Source: Dyella sp. S184
Lineage (GTDB): Bacteria > Pseudomonadota > Gammaproteobacteria > Xanthomonadales > Rhodanobacteraceae
Length of the DNA stretch: 64,000 nt
Reading direction: 5' to 3'
NCBI RefSeq assembly: GCF_009766065.1
Contig: NZ_LMUE01000003.1
Coordinates: 416,809-480,808, forward strand
In this document: positions 952 to 5,939 of the stretch, piece after piece
Position numbering within the stretch: position 1 is the first letter of the stretch
Layout of the letters: every line of letters starts with the position of its first letter
The notes under the pieces: generated by a model
What the model was told of the DNA's origin: nothing
What the model saw: only the letters and a program-made list of their open reading frames with translations
Databases searched by the model: none
Position numbers and translations under genes: made by a program

Positions 952-1509
952 GTGAGCCCGAGCCGCAGCCGCAATCAGTACGAACTCGATGATGAAGAGG
1001 ATTACGGCCCCAGCCGTACCCAGCAGCGCCGCGACGCACTCGCCGTGCTGGTATTGGCGCAGCAACTGGTCGATCTGCAACCGAGCCGACTGGCCAAGCT
1101 CGCGCTGCCGGACGACGTGCGCCACGAGATCGATGTCACCCGCCGCACCCCTTCCCACGGCGCGAAGAAACGCCAACTCGCCTTCCTCGCCAAGGTCATG
1201 CGCCGCTACGGTGACGATGACTTCGCCGCCGTGCGCGCCGAACTCGGCGAGAACCGCGAGAAGCAGCGCCAGGAAAACGCCGCGATGCATCGCCTCGAAG
1301 CGATGCGCGATCGTTTGATCGCCGAGGACGAGGGCGCGTTGTCTGAATTGATCGCCGAGCATCCGCAGGTCGATCGGCAACATCTGCGGTCGTTGGTGCG
1401 GCAGGCGCGCATCGAGAAAGACGTTCCGAACAAGCCGCCGAGGGCGTATCGGGAGATTTTTCAGTTGTTGAAGGATCTGGCGAAGCCGGACGATTCGGCC
1501 GAGGCCTGA
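952..1509 (+). CDS. darP: DarP/YjgA family ribosome-associated protein (DUF615)
   Basis: A 185-residue, highly charged helical protein of the YjgA/DUF615 family, which in E. coli associates with late 50S intermediates and was renamed DarP (dual-action ribosomal maturation protein). Typical family elements are seen: the PSRSRNQYELDDEEDYGPSRTQQRR start, a LAKLALPDDVRHEID segment and a C-terminal LRSLVRQARIEK helix. The start is GTG at 952, with no better ATG. It neighbours pmbA in many gammaproteobacteria, as here. Downstream the core gene order is interrupted by the repeat-flanked tcmP cassette before tldD resumes. Confidence 0.93.
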   Translation: MSPSRSRNQYELDDEEDYGPSRTQQRRDALAVLVLAQQLVDLQPSRLAKLALPDDVRHEIDVTRRTPSHGAKKRQLAFLAKVMRRYGDDDFAAVRAELGENREKQRQENAAMHRLEAMRDRLIAEDEGALSELIAEHPQVDRQHLRSLVRQARIEKDVPNKPPRAYREIFQLLKDLAKPDDSAEA

Positions 1510-1575
1510 GTGATCCGCGGCACCTTGCGCGGTGCGCTTACTCGCTCCAGCGAAGACTATAGACCCTTCCAGAGT

Positions 1576-1767
1576 CGTCATTCCGGCGTAGGCAGGAATC
1601 GCTTCTGCTTTAGCTCATCATTCCGGCGAACGCCGGAATCGCCTCTAGTTTAGCTCGTCATTCCGGCGAAGGCCGGAATCGCCTCTGCTTTAGCTCGTCA
1701 TTCCGGCGAAGGCCGGAATCGCCCCTGCTTTAGCTCGTCATTCCGGCGAAGGCCAGAATCGCCTCTG
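1576..1767. repeat. Tandem array, five copies of a 40-bp palindromic repeat
   Basis: Units begin at 1576, 1616, 1656, 1696 and 1736, giving an exact 40-bp period. Each carries the palindrome TTCCGGCGAAGGCCGGAA with small variations, followed by a short linker (CGCCTCTGCTTTAGCT). The core resembles the dispersed REP-like elements common in Xanthomonadales genomes. An inverted relative with a 37-bp period lies at 4377-4480, on the other side of the tcmP cassette. There are no unique spacers, so this is not CRISPR. Together with the element at 1790-1931 it fills the gene-free stretch between darP and the cassette. Confidence 0.9.
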
Positions 1768-1789
1768 CACTTTGGAGCTTTACAGCCAA

Positions 1790-1931
1790 GAGCTTTCGCC
1801 CTCCTTCGGAGGCCGAGTTACTTTCTCTTTGCGTGGCCAAAGAGAAAGCTAACCAAAGAGAAAGGCCACCCCGCTTGGCGCTTGCCGCACAGGGGCCCCG
1901 GTAGAGCAGCGGGCCATCGTGGCCCGCACTC
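1790..1931. repeat. Left copy of inverted dispersed repeat flanking the tcmP cassette
   Basis: This stretch holds GAGCTTTCG, a TTACTTTCTCTTTGCGTGGC segment with its near-inverse, CCACCCCGCTTGGCGCTTGCC, a GCACAGGGGCCCCGG segment and a GCGGGCCATCGTGGCCCGC hairpin. The same blocks occur in reverse-complement order at 4067-4335. No transposase or recombinase is encoded within or beside it. Confidence 0.85.
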
Positions 1932-1996
1932 TTCAGAAGAGCCAGAGCACAAACAGAACACCGTCAGCTCCCGGATTACGATCCTTGACTCGCATA

Positions 1997-2737
1997 TCAG
2001 CCGTAGGCGGGCATTCCATCCCAGGTGCGGCCATCCATTATTCGGCCATTTGCCTTCTTGGAGTGATGCTCCCCGTTCGCATTGAATGCACCCCACTGCT
2101 TGAAAAAGAACTGCACACTCTGCTCTTCGCACTGCCTTTGCACATTACGTACCCAAGCTTCCTTCATAGGGCGCGCTCCCGCTCCTGATTCGCCGCCAAC
2201 AATCACCCAGTGGATGTCCGTGAGATCTAATTCGCCTACGTCCTCAAGCAAAGGCTCAACACTTAGGAATCGGATGGCCGCAGGAACTTGGCGTAGAAAA
2301 TCGATGCGCGGAACGCCATGGCGTTTGTTCTCAACGGAGACACCTAGCCAAATATGTTTCGGAATCCGCCTTTCAAATGCATAGTCGAGCAATCGCTCAG
2401 CTCGCTTCGTGAGGACTTGAAAAGTGTGCTGTGGGCATCGGCACATGACGTCGAAGACACGATCTATGAACGATTCCGGTATTTGCGTATGAAAAAGATC
2501 ACTCATCGAGTTGACGAAATACACGGTCGGCTTTGATCGCTTAAGAGGCTCGTCTAAACGGTTAGGCAAGGTTCGAACTTTGCGGAAGCCCTGCTCGTAA
2601 CCCGGAGTACCCATAGCTTGAAGACGTCGCGCCATCGTCTCCGCGTAACAATGTTTACAACCCGCGCTGAGCTTGGTGCAGCCAACAACAGGATTCCAAG
2701 TGCTTTCGGTCCATTCGATCCGCGACTTCGTCGTCAT
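1997..2737 (-). CDS. Phage Gp37/Gp68 family protein (DUF5131), three-Cys radical-SAM-like
   Basis: A 246-residue protein of the phage Gp37/Gp68 (DUF5131) family. It begins with an IEWTESTWNPVVGC motif and carries three cysteines at residues 20, 27 and 30 (C-x6-C-x2-C), the arrangement that gives the family its three-Cys-motif name and recalls radical-SAM iron-sulfur ligation. Further family motifs are VNSMSDLFH, LTKRAERL, WLGVSVENK, FLSVEPLLED and WVIVGGESGAGARPM, the last near residue 180. It starts inside the stop of tcmP (ATGA overlap), so the two are translationally coupled. GC content is far below the flanking genes. The reaction catalysed is unknown to me; a redox or radical chemistry role is inferred only from the cysteine pattern. 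Confidence 0.9.
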   Translation of the reverse strand: MTTKSRIEWTESTWNPVVGCTKLSAGCKHCYAETMARRLQAMGTPGYEQGFRKVRTLPNRLDEPLKRSKPTVYFVNSMSDLFHTQIPESFIDRVFDVMCRCPQHTFQVLTKRAERLLDYAFERRIPKHIWLGVSVENKRHGVPRIDFLRQVPAAIRFLSVEPLLEDVGELDLTDIHWVIVGGESGAGARPMKEAWVRNVQRQCEEQSVQFFFKQWGAFNANGEHHSKKANGRIMDGRTWDGMPAYG

Positions 2738-3903
2738 ACTAGCCTCTTCAATCGCTCGGTCTTGTCAAAATTCACACCGTTTTTAGAACGCGCTCGCTTC
2801 ATGTCGAGATTCACGATCACGCCCTGCTTTTGTAAGTTCAAAAGCCCTCGTTGCAATTCTCCGATGAAGCAATTGTTGCGCTCTATCATTTCAGCCATCT
2901 CAGGCTGACCAATGCACATCTCACATCCTGCGACCGGCAAGAGTTCCAACCAAGGCTGCTCAAGCGCTTCTTGTCCAGCCTCTGAAGGAGCGTCCTGATC
3001 TGAGAATAGGTCACCATTCCCCGTCTTCTTCTCTCTGCGTTGCTGTATTACACAAAACCTCACGGATTGTTGTGTTTCGTGTGCTTTCTCGCTTGCCTCA
3101 GCGAACTTGATGACTCCCAAGTCATGATGGGTAACGTGAACCAGAAAATATTTGGAAGTAGTCGAGCCTGGATATTGAACTGGAAAACTGACGCTTCTGG
3201 TTCGCTCCGCACCACTTGCAACCGAAGATTCAACCAACCTTTTACGATACAGATTCAACAACCAGCACTCCCTATCCGGATCTCCCGCTAAAGGAGCCTC
3301 CGCCAGTCCTTCACCAAAAATTTCCTTCAGGTTGCTCAGTTGAGCCGCCTCATGCTGGTGTCCCACGGCCATGGATAGAAATTTCCACATGTAGTTGATC
3401 AGCACTTCGACGCGGCGCTTTTTCAACAACGGTGCTAATGCCGATGGCGAAATGATCCCCTTCCAGCCCAGCGGATCAATCAACACAAACGCAAAATCTG
3501 AACCGATGAAATCAGCAATTCGAGTCACGCAATTTTGAAAGTCATCATGCCATGCACTGATATTGAATTCGGGACCTTTCTCATTTGCAACGAAGACTTC
3601 CAGCTTCGCAAATGCAGCCGGGCTCTTCTCGATAAAAAGTGCATCAAAGCGAACTCGTTTATGCAGTTTTTCCTCAAGCTGTTCTTGGCAGGCTCGCATG
3701 ATGCGAACCGCTTGCCCGAATGACGTATCTCGGTAGTCATCCGTCGCAGACTCCCACGGTCCTGCGAAGGCATCGACATACACGATACGCGGACAGTGTT
3801 GCCCCAGAATCATGACGAAGCGTTGGAGATAAGCCGAGAGCAGCTGATGTTTTACGAACCCTTGCTCTCGGCCAGCATACGGTACGAGATCACTTTGCTT
3901 CAT
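2734..3903 (-). CDS. tcmP: Three-Cys-motif partner protein TcmP, methyltransferase-like
   Basis: A 389-residue protein matching the TcmP family, found as the obligate neighbour of three-Cys-motif Gp37/Gp68 proteins. The N-terminal half looks like a Rossmann-type methyltransferase: YVDAFAGPW at residues 42-50 in the position of motif I, FIEKSP at 90-95 as the acidic strand-2 end, and LIDPLGWKG at 141-149 in the position of motif IV. The C-terminal half has the family YPGSTTSKYFLVH segment and an extra CEMC pair at 327-330. A good AAGGAG site precedes the ATG at 3903. Two 60-base lines counted by hand within the two-gene cassette were 38-43% GC, against over 60% around it, which suggests horizontal acquisition. 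Substrate unknown. Confidence 0.88.
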   Translation of the reverse strand: MKQSDLVPYAGREQGFVKHQLLSAYLQRFVMILGQHCPRIVYVDAFAGPWESATDDYRDTSFGQAVRIMRACQEQLEEKLHKRVRFDALFIEKSPAAFAKLEVFVANEKGPEFNISAWHDDFQNCVTRIADFIGSDFAFVLIDPLGWKGIISPSALAPLLKKRRVEVLINYMWKFLSMAVGHQHEAAQLSNLKEIFGEGLAEAPLAGDPDRECWLLNLYRKRLVESSVASGAERTRSVSFPVQYPGSTTSKYFLVHVTHHDLGVIKFAEASEKAHETQQSVRFCVIQQRREKKTGNGDLFSDQDAPSEAGQEALEQPWLELLPVAGCEMCIGQPEMAEMIERNNCFIGELQRGLLNLQKQGVIVNLDMKRARSKNGVNFDKTERLKRLV

Positions 3904-4041
3904 TCGCCCACTCCTTGCGAATCAGAAGAACTGGTCAAACAGCGACGCACGCAGGCCCTAACTGCGTCGTATCCGACCATTGAGGTCAGCCCTTAGCCTA
4001 CAGTCGATGTTATCTCACAAGCATTCCGTGACCTTCTCTCT

Positions 4042-4062
4042 CGCAACCGCGAAGCGGTTGCG
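4042..4062. other. Perfect 9-bp stem hairpin upstream of tcmP
   Basis: CGCAACCGC, a GAA loop and GCGGTTGCG form a perfect stem-loop about 140 bases upstream of tcmP. It has no T tract on either side. It may be part of the repeat block that follows or a transcript-end structure. The rest of 3904-4066 shows no gene. Confidence 0.5.
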
Positions 4063-4066
4063 TACC

Positions 4067-4335
4067 GAGTGCGGGCCAGGATGGCCCGCTGCTCTACCCG
4101 GGGCCCCTGTGCGGCGGTGAGACGGGGACGACAGGCCGCGAAGCGGGAGTCGACAGGGAGGTCGACTCCTTTTCGTCAGGACAGGAGTCCTGTCGAAAAG
4201 CCCGGCGCCGGCTCACGGACTTGCCGGGCATGGATGCCCGGCAAGCGCCAAGCGGGGTGGCCTTCTCTTTTGGTTACTTTTCTCTTGGCCACGCAAGAGA
4301 AAAGTGACTCGGCTGCCGCAGGCAGACGAAAGCTC
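4067..4335. repeat. Right copy of inverted dispersed repeat flanking the tcmP cassette
   Basis: Reading the minus strand from 4335 gives the same ordered blocks as 1790-1931: GAGCTTTCG, a TCACTTTTCTCTTGCGTGGC segment, GGCCACCCCGCTTGGCGCTTGCC, GCACAGGGGCCCCGGG, and GCGGGCCATCCTGGCCCGC. This copy is about 125 bp longer because a block at roughly 4118-4245 holds three further hairpins (GGAGTCGAC with GTCGACTCC; a CGACAGGACTCCTGTCCTG palindrome; and GCCGGGCATGGATGCCCGGC). Confidence 0.85.
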
Positions 4336-4376
4336 CTCGCTCTAGATACCAGAGCGTAGAAGAGCAAATGCGATTC

Positions 4377-4480
4377 CGGCCTTCGCCGGAATGACGACTG
4401 GTGGGGGCTGATGCGGCCTTCGCCGGAATGACGACTGGTGGGGGCTGATGCGGCCTTCGCCGGAGTGACGACTGGGAGGG
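4377..4480. repeat. Tandem array, three copies of a 37-bp palindromic repeat
   Basis: Units start at 4377, 4414 and 4451 with an exact 37-bp period. Each contains CGGCCTTCGCCGGAATGACG, the reverse complement of the core of the array at 1576-1767, joined by a different linker (ACTGGTGGGGGCTGATG). It lies directly before the tldD stop codon and completes the mirror-image arrangement around the tcmP cassette. Confidence 0.88.
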
Positions 4481-4499
4481 TCGAAACAAATACCCGGAC

Positions 4500-5939
4500 T
4501 TATGACGCCGTGCCGCCCACCGTCATCGAATCGATCTTCAGCGTCGGCTGACCCACGCCCACCGGCACACTCTGCCCATCCTTGCCGCAAACACCCACGC
4601 CCTCATCCAGCGCCAGATCGTTGCCGATCATCGAGACACGATTGAGCACTTCCGGTCCGGAGCCAATCAACGTAGCTCCCTTCACCGGCCGCGTAATCCG
4701 ACCGTCCTCGATCAGATACGCCTCGCTGGCCGAGAAAGTGAACTTGCCATTGGTGATGTCGACCTGGCCACCGCCGAAGTTGGGCGCATACAAACCCTTC
4801 TTGACCGAGCGGATGATCTCCTGCGGATCGTGTGATCCTGCCAGCATGTAGGTGTTGGTCATGCGCGGCATAGGCAGCGACGTGAATGATTCGCGCCGGC
4901 CGTTGCCGGTGGGCGCCATGCCCATCAGGCGCGCGTTGAGCTTGTCCTGCATGTAGCCCTTGAGGATGCCATCCTCGATCAGCGTGGTGCACTCGGTGGG
5001 CGTGCCCTCGTCGTCGATGCTGAGCGAGCCACGACGACCCGGCAACGTGCCGTCATCGACGATGGTGACGCCCTTGGCAGCGACGCGCTGGCCGATGCGG
5101 CCGGAAAACGCGGAGCTGCCCTTGCGGTTGAAGTCGCCTTCCAGGCCGTGGCCAATCGCCTCATGCAGCAGCACGCCGGGCCAGCCCGGGCCGAGTACCA
5201 CGGTCATGCTGCCGGCGGGTGCATCGACGGCGTCGAGGTTTACCAGTGCCTGGCGCACTGCCTCGTCGGCGAACGCCAGCGCGCGGCCATTCTCGATCAG
5301 CTCGCGATAACCGTAGCGACCGCCGCCGCCGGAATTGCCCTGCTCGCGCCGGCCATTCTGTTCGGCGATCACCTGCACGCTGAGCCGCACCAGCGGGCGC
5401 ACGTCGGCGGCAAGCGTGCCGTCGGAGGCGGCGATCAGGATCGTGTCGATGGTGGCGGCCAAGCTCACGATCACCTGCTTCACGCGCGGGTCGCGCGAGC
5501 GCGCATATGCATCGACCTCACGCAGCAGCGCGATCTTGTCCGGGTTCGGCAGGCTCTCGACCGGGTCGATCGCCGGATACAGCTGGCGCGCGCCGTTCAG
5601 GGCCAGCGGCTTGCCGGCACCGTTGCCATCATGCGCGATCGCGCGCGCGGCTTTCGAGGCTTCCAGCAGCTGCGGCAGCACGATCTCGTCGGAATAGGCG
5701 AAGCCGGTCTTCTCGCCGCTGATCGCGCGCACGCCCACACCCTGCTCGATCGAATGGCTGCCATCCTTGACGATGCCCTCCTCCAGCAACCACGACTCGC
5801 TGCGTGAATGCTGGAAGTAGAGATCCGCGGCGTCGATCGACGGCCCCATCAGTTGGGTGAACACGCGGTCGAGGTCGCCGGTGGCGATGCCACCCGGGGT
5901 GAGCAACTTGCTCTGCGCTAGTGCGATCAGGGAATCCAT
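4500..5939 (-). CDS. tldD: Metalloprotease TldD
   Basis: A 479-residue TldD protein, the catalytic subunit of the TldD/PmbA(TldE) zinc protease that cleaves unfolded or modified peptides in the cytoplasm, including antitoxin CcdA and some ribosomally made antibiotics in E. coli. The zinc site [11 protein letters not shown] is at residues 259-269 (HExxxH at 259-264), with the usual [16 protein letters not shown] segment after it. Length fits E. coli TldD (481). Its N-terminal LLTPGG and [25 protein letters not shown] segments are typical. In E. coli tldD follows yhdP; here a fatty-acid-hydroxylase gene on the opposite strand separates them, and the partner pmbA lies beyond the tcmP cassette. 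Confidence 0.97.

What the first reader, a model, noticed from the sequence alone, without database searches (positions are those of the whole stretch)
1510..4499. tcmP plus three-Cys Gp37/Gp68 cassette between darP and tldD, enclosed by mirror-image repeats
A two-gene, low-GC unit (methyltransferase-like TcmP and a C-x6-C-x2-C radical-SAM-like protein, coupled by ATGA) interrupts the conserved pmbA-darP-tldD order. It is bounded on each side by an inner inverted repeat and an outer palindromic array in opposite orientation, and carries no transposase or recombinase. The pair is known as a recurrent two-gene neighbourhood (TIGR04474 with PF07505), but the reaction it performs is, to my knowledge, undescribed. 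The fold pattern suggests modification of a nucleic acid or protein by methyl transfer and radical chemistry. This is my main candidate for an undescribed system, possibly phage related.
Basis: partly seen in the sequence, partly recalled or inferred. Interest (0 to 1): 0.78.

Follow-up and report, generated by a model that had tools for sequence, protein, structure and literature searches.

The report
Gene pair inside palindromic repeat cassette
A mobile pair of genes that probably chemically alters DNA or RNA sits at the centre of a long mirror-image repeat, a spot where related bacteria carry nothing or other genes, including suspected anti-virus genes.

Summary
Between darP and tldD lies a low-GC DUF5131 + TcmP pair bracketed by facing repeats.

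The repeats are arms (~280 bp) of a dispersed palindromic element. In six sister genomes 48 of 48 arm pairs within 8 kb face the same way; spacing is bimodal, 38 at 50-149 bp (empty) and 9 at 0.9-5.3 kb (cargo). At darP-tldD sister species hold other cargo: a TIR effector (PADLOC PDC-S35), a NERD protein, unknowns. At two other sites the states seen were no insert, REP doublet only, empty element and loaded element. Cargo sits where a giant predicted hairpin would have its tip.

TcmP is predicted to fold like RlmJ/Trm1 RNA methyltransferases, DUF5131 like spore photoproduct lyase with three invariant cysteines. The best TcmP locus of each of 20 TcmP-bearing class genomes has DUF5131 beside it. 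In 27 of 80 relatives a LexA-like S24 regulator is adjacent; the window has none.

Best reading: a mobile nucleic-acid-modifying module, probably anti-phage, captured in a palindromic landing pad. PADLOC already lists the pair as a candidate. Chemistry and activity are untested.

The parts
952..1509 (+). left flanking gene, called darP (name recalled, not scanned)
   Evidence: ORF; match in 45 of 45 genus genomes
1575..1768 (+). outer left REP array, five 40-bp palindromic units (last partial) of CGTC-REP type
   Evidence: class description in PMC3733652 (passages seen)
1781..1931 (+). left arm of the palindromic element, lacking about 120 bp relative to the right arm
1932..1943 (+). B-end motif TTCAGAAGAGCC at the left arm-cargo junction
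   Evidence: recurs, with variants, beside arms of other elements
1997..2737 (-). DUF5131 (Gp37/Gp68) protein, predicted radical-SAM-like, C20-C27-C30
2734..3903 (-). tcmP, predicted class I nucleic-acid methyltransferase-like protein, first gene of the pair
4042..4066 (+). A-end hairpin motif CGCAACCGC-GAA-GCGGTTGCG and TACC at the right arm-cargo junction
   Evidence: homology with the element of five sister species starts at 4038
4067..4344 (+). right arm of the palindromic element
4363..4474 (-). outer right REP array, opposite orientation
4500..5939 (-). right flanking gene, called tldD (name recalled, not scanned)
   Evidence: ORF; found facing darP in the 29 intervals that could be closed

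Best explanation
The interval is a three-layer nest: REP arrays outside, a palindromic element with ~280-bp arms inside them, and a horizontally acquired two-gene cargo at the palindrome's centre. The cargo makes a two-enzyme nucleic-acid-modifying module. TcmP, an RlmJ/Trm1-like methyltransferase fold, binds a nucleic acid and probably methylates a base amine. DUF5131, a spore-photoproduct-lyase-like radical SAM protein with a Cx6Cx2C cluster site, then carries out radical chemistry on that base or on the methyl group, as TYW1 does on m1G made by Trm5 (recalled precedent). In many relatives the pair lies beside a LexA-like self-cleaving regulator, so there it is probably switched on by DNA damage or phage replication. 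The most likely benefit is defence of the cell or resident prophage against other phages. Shown here: anatomy, dispersal of the element, cargo turnover, gene coupling, conserved residues, regulator adjacency. Shown by prediction only: both folds. Inferred: methylation, radical reaction, substrate, damage induction, defence.
For: Arm pairs 48 of 48 in one orientation, bimodal spacing. Recurring inner junction motifs. Different cargo at the same site in G006, G018, G009 and G017, whose flanking DNA is 84-91% identical to ours. No-insert, REP-doublet-only, empty and loaded states at two other sites. Cargo GC below flanks in 14 of 14 testable cassettes. Coupling: best locus of each of 20 TcmP-bearing genomes of a 369-genome class sample; 72 of 80 genome loci and 17 of 18 IMG/VR loci have DUF5131 within 2.5 kb. 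Folds. C20, C27, C30 invariant in 60 of 60 DUF5131. DPxG in 13 of 15 diverse TcmP. S24 regulator beside the pair in 27 of 80, none elsewhere in the stretches, with AG, SM and K kept in the 16 aligned. Phage position between integrase and immunity repressor. PADLOC PDC-M30B/M41B and PDC-S35 in the same slot of a sister. Weak correlate: PDC-M30 was predicted in 32 P. aeruginosa strains, 68.8% of them phage-resistant (PMC10855318, one passage seen).
Against: PDC-M30A matches TcmP only weakly (6e-10). No sequence relative of either protein in PDB beyond chance-level matches. The Cys spacing is not the canonical Cx3Cx2C. A second TcmP type in Pseudomonas has DQ instead of DP at motif IV (2 of 15 rows), so catalysis may not be universal. 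The window has no S24 regulator, so damage gating is not shown for this copy. Of 15 bracketed cassettes only 4 carry defence-type families on a generous count; others carry SDR/AraC, ice-binding, DUF4826 or unmatched genes. 13 of 29 closed darP-tldD intervals vary without any arm of 40 bp or more. Solo DUF5131 sits among phage DNA-metabolism genes, which fits a non-defence role. No phage assay of the pair turned up in the literature searches.
Confidence: 0.5

Rival explanations
1. DNA repair or lesion-reversal module: DUF5131 reverses a base lesion by radical chemistry, as spore photoproduct lyase does, with TcmP recognising or flipping the damaged base, under a LexA-like regulator.
Against: Carriage by prophages, plasmids and a rare variable slot fits an accessory conflict gene better than repair. 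A repair enzyme would not obviously need an obligate methyltransferase-fold partner. Solved spore photoproduct lyases act alone (recalled).
Confidence: 0.22
2. Self-modification module: the pair hypermodifies the DNA or tRNA of its mobile host (phage, plasmid, ICE) to evade nucleases, and its chromosomal copies are remnants.
For: 161 of 50,697 phage records match DUF5131; three solo copies read lie beside replication, recombination or methylase genes. The pair also lies on plasmids.
Against: In the two phage pairs read in detail it lies with integrase and repressor, not in a DNA-modification cluster. The chromosomal cassette is intact, both ORFs open.
Confidence: 0.18
3. The brackets are incidental: REP and palindromic repeats collect between convergent genes, and homologous recombination through darP/tldD replaced the interval with whatever a donor had.
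For: darP and tldD converge; intervals vary even without arms (13 of 29 closed intervals have no arm of 40 bp or more).
Against: Flank divergence shows no sharp recombination tract. Cargo lies centrally between facing arms at sites unrelated to darP-tldD, with recurring junction motifs, and loaded, empty and absent states occur at the same sites.
Confidence: 0.25
4. The pair is an ordinary housekeeping RNA-modification enzyme of this species.
For: RlmJ/Trm1-like predicted fold.
Against: The pair is in 2 of 45 genus genomes and TcmP in 20 of 369 class genomes.
Confidence: 0.03

Closest known systems
PADLOC candidate systems PDC-M30 / PDC-M41 (TcmP-like A gene with DUF5131-like B gene)
   Same: Both genes adjacent; B gene matches at about 1e-110
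   Different: A gene matches only at 6e-10; candidate status. Two papers name PDC-M30; in the one passage I saw (PMC10855318) it is only counted in strains, the other (PMC11878078) I saw in the listing only
rSAM_mob_pairA (TIGR04471)
   Same: DUF5131 matches at 3.6e-27; 60 of 60 DUF5131 members match
   Different: 95 bits, far under the equivalog cut-off of 355
Spore photoproduct lyase, radical SAM superfamily
   Different: Cx6Cx2C spacing; no sequence match; paired with a methyltransferase-fold protein
RlmJ (DUF519) and Trm1 methyltransferases
   Different: Motif IV is DPxG, not the DPPY of N6-adenine enzymes (recalled); extra C-terminal part; a partner gene
REPINs, CGTC/GTAG REPs, TIRtrons (PMC3733652, passages seen; PMC3116915, search listing only)
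   Same: Inverted REP doublets flank the element in G040 and occur alone at the same two sites in other genomes
   Different: ~280-bp arms and gene-sized cargo at the centre; no Y1 transposase match in G000
Mobile insertion cassettes (MICs; recalled, search listing)
   Same: Passenger genes between inverted repeats without a transposase
   Different: Arms are long and multi-hairpin and usually meet over a 50-149 bp centre; no target duplication seen

Membership tests
DUF5131 (PF07505) | whole-protein score over curated cut-off | tested here: met
   359.9 bits against 28.9
TcmP (TIGR04474) | score over curated cut-off | tested here: met
   105.7 bits against 53
rSAM_mob_pairA (TIGR04471) | equivalog cut-off 355 bits | tested here: not met
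   95.3 bits
PADLOC PDC-M30/PDC-M41 | adjacent A and B genes matching the models | tested here: inconclusive
   B gene 1.7e-111 and 1.4e-110; A gene 6e-10 and 1.3e-6; no cut-offs given
Radical SAM enzymes | three cysteines for a 4Fe-4S cluster, invariant | tested here: met
   C20, C27, C30 in 60 of 60 rows; their placement around a cluster was not measured
Radical SAM enzymes | canonical Cx3Cx2C spacing | tested here: not met
   Cx6Cx2C; exceptions to the canonical spacing are recalled
Radical SAM enzymes | radical SAM barrel fold | tested here: met
   predicted model only; the top matches are radical SAM enzymes
Radical SAM enzymes | cluster binding and SAM cleavage | not testable with these tools
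   needs purified protein
Class I SAM methyltransferase, RlmJ/Trm1-like | methyltransferase fold | tested here: met
Class I SAM methyltransferase, RlmJ/Trm1-like | conserved acidic SAM-binding motifs | tested here: inconclusive
   D44, E92, D143 in 66 of 66 rows, but those rows were found with patterns over two of these motifs; in 15 rows chosen otherwise DPxG holds in 13
N6-adenine methyltransferase (RlmJ proper) | DPPY motif IV | tested here: not met
   DPLG in the window protein; the DPPY rule is recalled
REPIN | two REPs in inverted orientation around a short loop | tested here: met
   G004 site 4 and G022 site 5 read directly; in the window the interior holds the element
REPIN | RAYT (PF01797) in the same genome | tested here: not met
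   0 matches in G000 and G006; present in 4 of the 6 genomes searched
Transposon or MITE | target-site duplication | tested here: inconclusive
   no duplication seen at sites 4 and 5, but the empty spacers are short and unconstrained
Anti-phage defence system | reduces phage plating | not testable with these tools

The most novel reading that the evidence does not exclude
Giant REPIN-like palindromes act as fixed chromosomal landing pads that capture and swap small gene cassettes, often defence-type, at the tip of the hairpin by a structure-guided mechanism with no resident transposase; one such cassette is a radical-SAM plus methyltransferase module whose relatives are LexA-gated.
Probability: 0.3. 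Interest if true: 0.85.

Novelty: new variant of a known kind. Interest (0 to 1): 0.62.

Why it matters
If right, a repeat usually ignored as intergenic clutter marks where this genus stores swappable genes, and its loaded copies can be listed to find new defence candidates. The link of the TcmP-DUF5131 pair to a LexA-like self-cleaving regulator, and its fold pairing of a radical SAM enzyme with an RNA-methyltransferase relative, turn a named but unexplained gene pair into a testable enzyme system.

Tried and rejected
Homologous exchange through the flanking genes: tldD protein of G013 is 100% identical to ours, which suggested a recent tract, but nucleotide identity is 89.7% around tldD and 88.4% around darP, so purifying selection explains it.

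RAYT mobilisation in this genome: no PF01797 match in G000, so not supported here.

Rfam: only a sub-threshold CRISPR-DR29 match inside the arm, taken as chance. Terminator scan: 1 found, 3.0 expected; promoter scan: 1 found, 1.0 expected. LexA-like box (CTG-N10-CAG) upstream of tcmP or of 13 upstream neighbour ORFs, some of which proved not to be S24 genes: none.

Arms in the plasmid or phage collections: no match. The exact A-end motif in IMG/VR: none. Arms near the Luteibacter, Dyella or Dokdonella pairs: none. Arms in other named genera were not searched, the one genome-contig scan being spent on TcmP.

A count of flanking gene orientation rests on longest open frames in high-GC DNA; I do not use it. 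The first GC test counted L117, whose right flank is missing at its contig edge; I dropped it and recomputed. TcmP residue invariance is partly built in, because the loci were found with patterns over two motifs; I lean on it less for that reason.

Literature: searches gave no described function for the pair and no description of this element in the listings and passages I saw; the library holds open-licence PMC papers only.
Full report
Observation. The 64-kb window lies in a 4.23-Mb, 20-contig genome. Its genus is unnamed in the tools; the four best named carriers of TcmP relatives are Luteibacter, Dyella (two) and Dokdonella, so a Rhodanobacteraceae genus such as Rhodanobacter is my inference. 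The interval 1510-4499 holds two minus-strand genes, tcmP (2734-3903) then DUF5131 (1997-2737), overlapping by ATGA. Family matches are PF07505 at 8.5e-108 and TIGR04474 at 105.7 bits against a cut-off of 53. PADLOC matches the second gene to PDC-M30B/M41B at about 1e-110 and the first to PDC-M30A at 6e-10; PHROGs gives family 2045, function unknown, for DUF5131. GC is 0.507; one of 621 overlapping windows is lower.

The repeats. Outer REP arrays and inner arms face each other across the pair. The outer units fit the CGTC-tagged REP class, described as lacking a dedicated transposase (PMC3733652, passages seen). The inner arm matches in 45 of 45 genus genomes (which scored at most 16 candidates per genome and listed the best rows only); the own genome has arm matches at three places. 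In six genomes searched again with up to 40 candidates scored each (still capped for G040, G009 and G001) I took the 111 listed arms of at least 100 bp and paired neighbours within 8 kb. All 48 pairs have the same inverted orientation; 15 arms stayed single. Spacers are 50-149 bp in 38, 254 bp in one, and 928-5319 bp in nine. An empty unit with its outer REPs (L105 663-1391) folds as single-stranded DNA at -278.8 kcal/mol against -143.6 (sd 6.3) for 20 shuffles. The large spacers therefore sit where the hairpin tip would be.

Junctions. In the five loaded darP-tldD elements read (G000, G006, G018, G009, G017) one arm is preceded by the hairpin CGCAACC..GGTTGCG (CGCAATC in G009); the other side carries TTCAGAAGAGCC or a variant in four, not in G009. 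At other sites the hairpin, mirrored and with base changes in five, occurs in eight of ten loaded elements (L109, L111-L116, L118); L110 and L117 lack it, and the second end of L113 does not fit the other motif. Of ten empty elements read, one (L100) has a similar hairpin; the near-empty darP-tldD element of G008 has it too. In G006, G022, G009, G015 and G008 homology with the window resumes at position 4038, in G017 at 4021.

Turnover at darP-tldD. darP is in 45 of 45 genomes. Of 29 intervals I could close, 16 hold an arm piece of 40 bp or more, 11 hold both orientations, and 13 vary without any. Lengths run from 438 to 10,479 bp. Cargo between arms: this pair; a CAP12/Pycsar-type TIR protein (PF10137; PADLOC PDC-S35 at 3e-81) in G006; a NERD protein, without a PADLOC match, in G009; a 322-aa and a 387-aa protein without a Pfam match in G018 and G017. 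The flanks of these four species are 84-91% identical to ours and show no sharp tract. DUF5131 is in 4 of 45 genomes and a single-sequence search found a TcmP relative in 1 of 45; a profile later found a diverged TcmP beside DUF5131 in G041, with no arms in the stretch, and none beside DUF5131 in G012 and G015.

Other sites. I used five flanks as one query and read two sites. Site 4: no insert in G006 and G000; a 43-bp spacer with a REP-like piece in G034; a bare REP doublet in G004; REP doublet plus empty element in G040; element in G009, G001, G007 and G010; element with 2.8 kb of AraC and SDR genes in G014; one arm in G028; G038, G044 and G017 could not be aligned on the far side. Site 5: no element in G010, G007, G028 and G044 (15-28 bp between the flanks); a REP doublet only in G022; an empty element in G009; element with cargo in G038; inserts of about 730 bp without arms in G001 and G008. 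This gives a nested series. I saw no target duplication.

Cargo. GC is below the mean of both flanks in 14 of 14 testable bracketed cassettes (mean -0.085, Wilcoxon p 1.2e-4; L117 dropped, its right flank is missing). Scanned ORFs of the 15 cassettes gave CAP12-type TIR, NERD twice, Abi_C, DUF4826, a zinc ribbon, an IS5-type transposase, AraC plus SDR and an ice-binding domain, besides the window's pair; the other scanned ORFs had no match and the cargo of L110 was not scanned. So cargo is varied, with defence-type genes in 4 of 15 on a generous count.

Coupling. In 369 class genomes TIGR04474 passes its cut-off in 20; the best locus of each has DUF5131 within the 1.5-kb flank. DUF5131 itself is in 31 of 369, some as fragments. 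In 80 genome loci (the best 80 of 325) 72, and in 18 IMG/VR loci 17, have DUF5131 within 2.5 kb; the other nine are four with none found in the held stretch, four with 3.9-4.3 kb between, and one viral stretch that ends inside tcmP. Gene order differs: DUF5131 first in 53, TcmP first in 31, convergent in 9. Some loci carry two TcmP genes (L192). Haloarcula pairs TcmP with another radical SAM gene.

Regulator and context. Among the nearest ORFs of 78 loci, Peptidase_S24 is the commonest Pfam family, 13 of 133, then KfrA_N with 6. It is not among the 25 families listed for 104 distant control ORFs, a list that ends at two members, so at most 2 of 104. A profile built from five of these S24 neighbours finds one beside the pair in 27 of 80 loci and none elsewhere in the stretches; being built from neighbours, it may miss other S24 types. 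Sixteen of the 27, aligned, keep the AG cleavage pair, SM and K of self-cleaving LexA-type proteins (residue roles recalled). Many of the 27 are Burkholderiales, so they are not independent. The window has no such gene. PADLOC matches among the 133 neighbours are headed by DNA methyltransferase models, 4 members each. In Gordonia phages ThankyouJordi and Fairfaxidum the pair lies between integrase and immunity repressor. In Sinorhizobium meliloti a TcmP gene is listed next to the Hna defence helicase in a table of genes up-regulated by NolR (PMC12445080, passages seen).

Verdict. The pair is a member of known but unexplained families and of a listed defence candidate. Its function remains inferred; defence is my first choice, repair and self-modification the main rivals.

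Noticed in passing
L079 7035-10058 (G041): A second genus member carries DUF5131 with a diverged TcmP and perhaps a second TcmP, at another site and without the palindromic arms in the stretch held.
   Followed up: partly
L120, L121, L192 (Pseudomonas): A second TcmP type with DQ in place of DP at motif IV (seen in L120 and L121); L120 and L192 carry two TcmP genes with DUF5131 between them, which suggests a heterodimer. Several Burkholderiales loci have over 1 kb between DUF5131 and TcmP.
   Followed up: no
L133 2805-5131 (Haloarcula plasmid): TcmP lies beside a different radical SAM protein with Cx3Cx2C, so the partner fold may matter more than the DUF5131 family.
   Followed up: no
L203, L205, L206, L209, L226, L231 upstream of the S24 gene: A shared dyad GATTTcGTCACgAAATC or a close variant lies directly before the predicted regulator start, a likely operator.
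   Followed up: no
L117 1210-4594 (G012): A 3.8-kb loaded element holds a NERD protein, an Abi_C protein and a 452-aa protein without a Pfam or PADLOC match: a possible new defence cassette.
   Followed up: partly
L115 1183-2133 (G006): A loaded element with a single low-GC (0.48) 316-aa gene without any Pfam or PADLOC match.
   Followed up: no
L284 and L286 (G001, G008), site 5: Inserts of about 730 bp without palindromic arms at the site where other species carry the element: perhaps another repeat family.
   Followed up: no
L080 and L081 (G015, G012): Longer solo DUF5131 genes without TcmP nearby, like those in phage DNA-metabolism regions.
   Followed up: no
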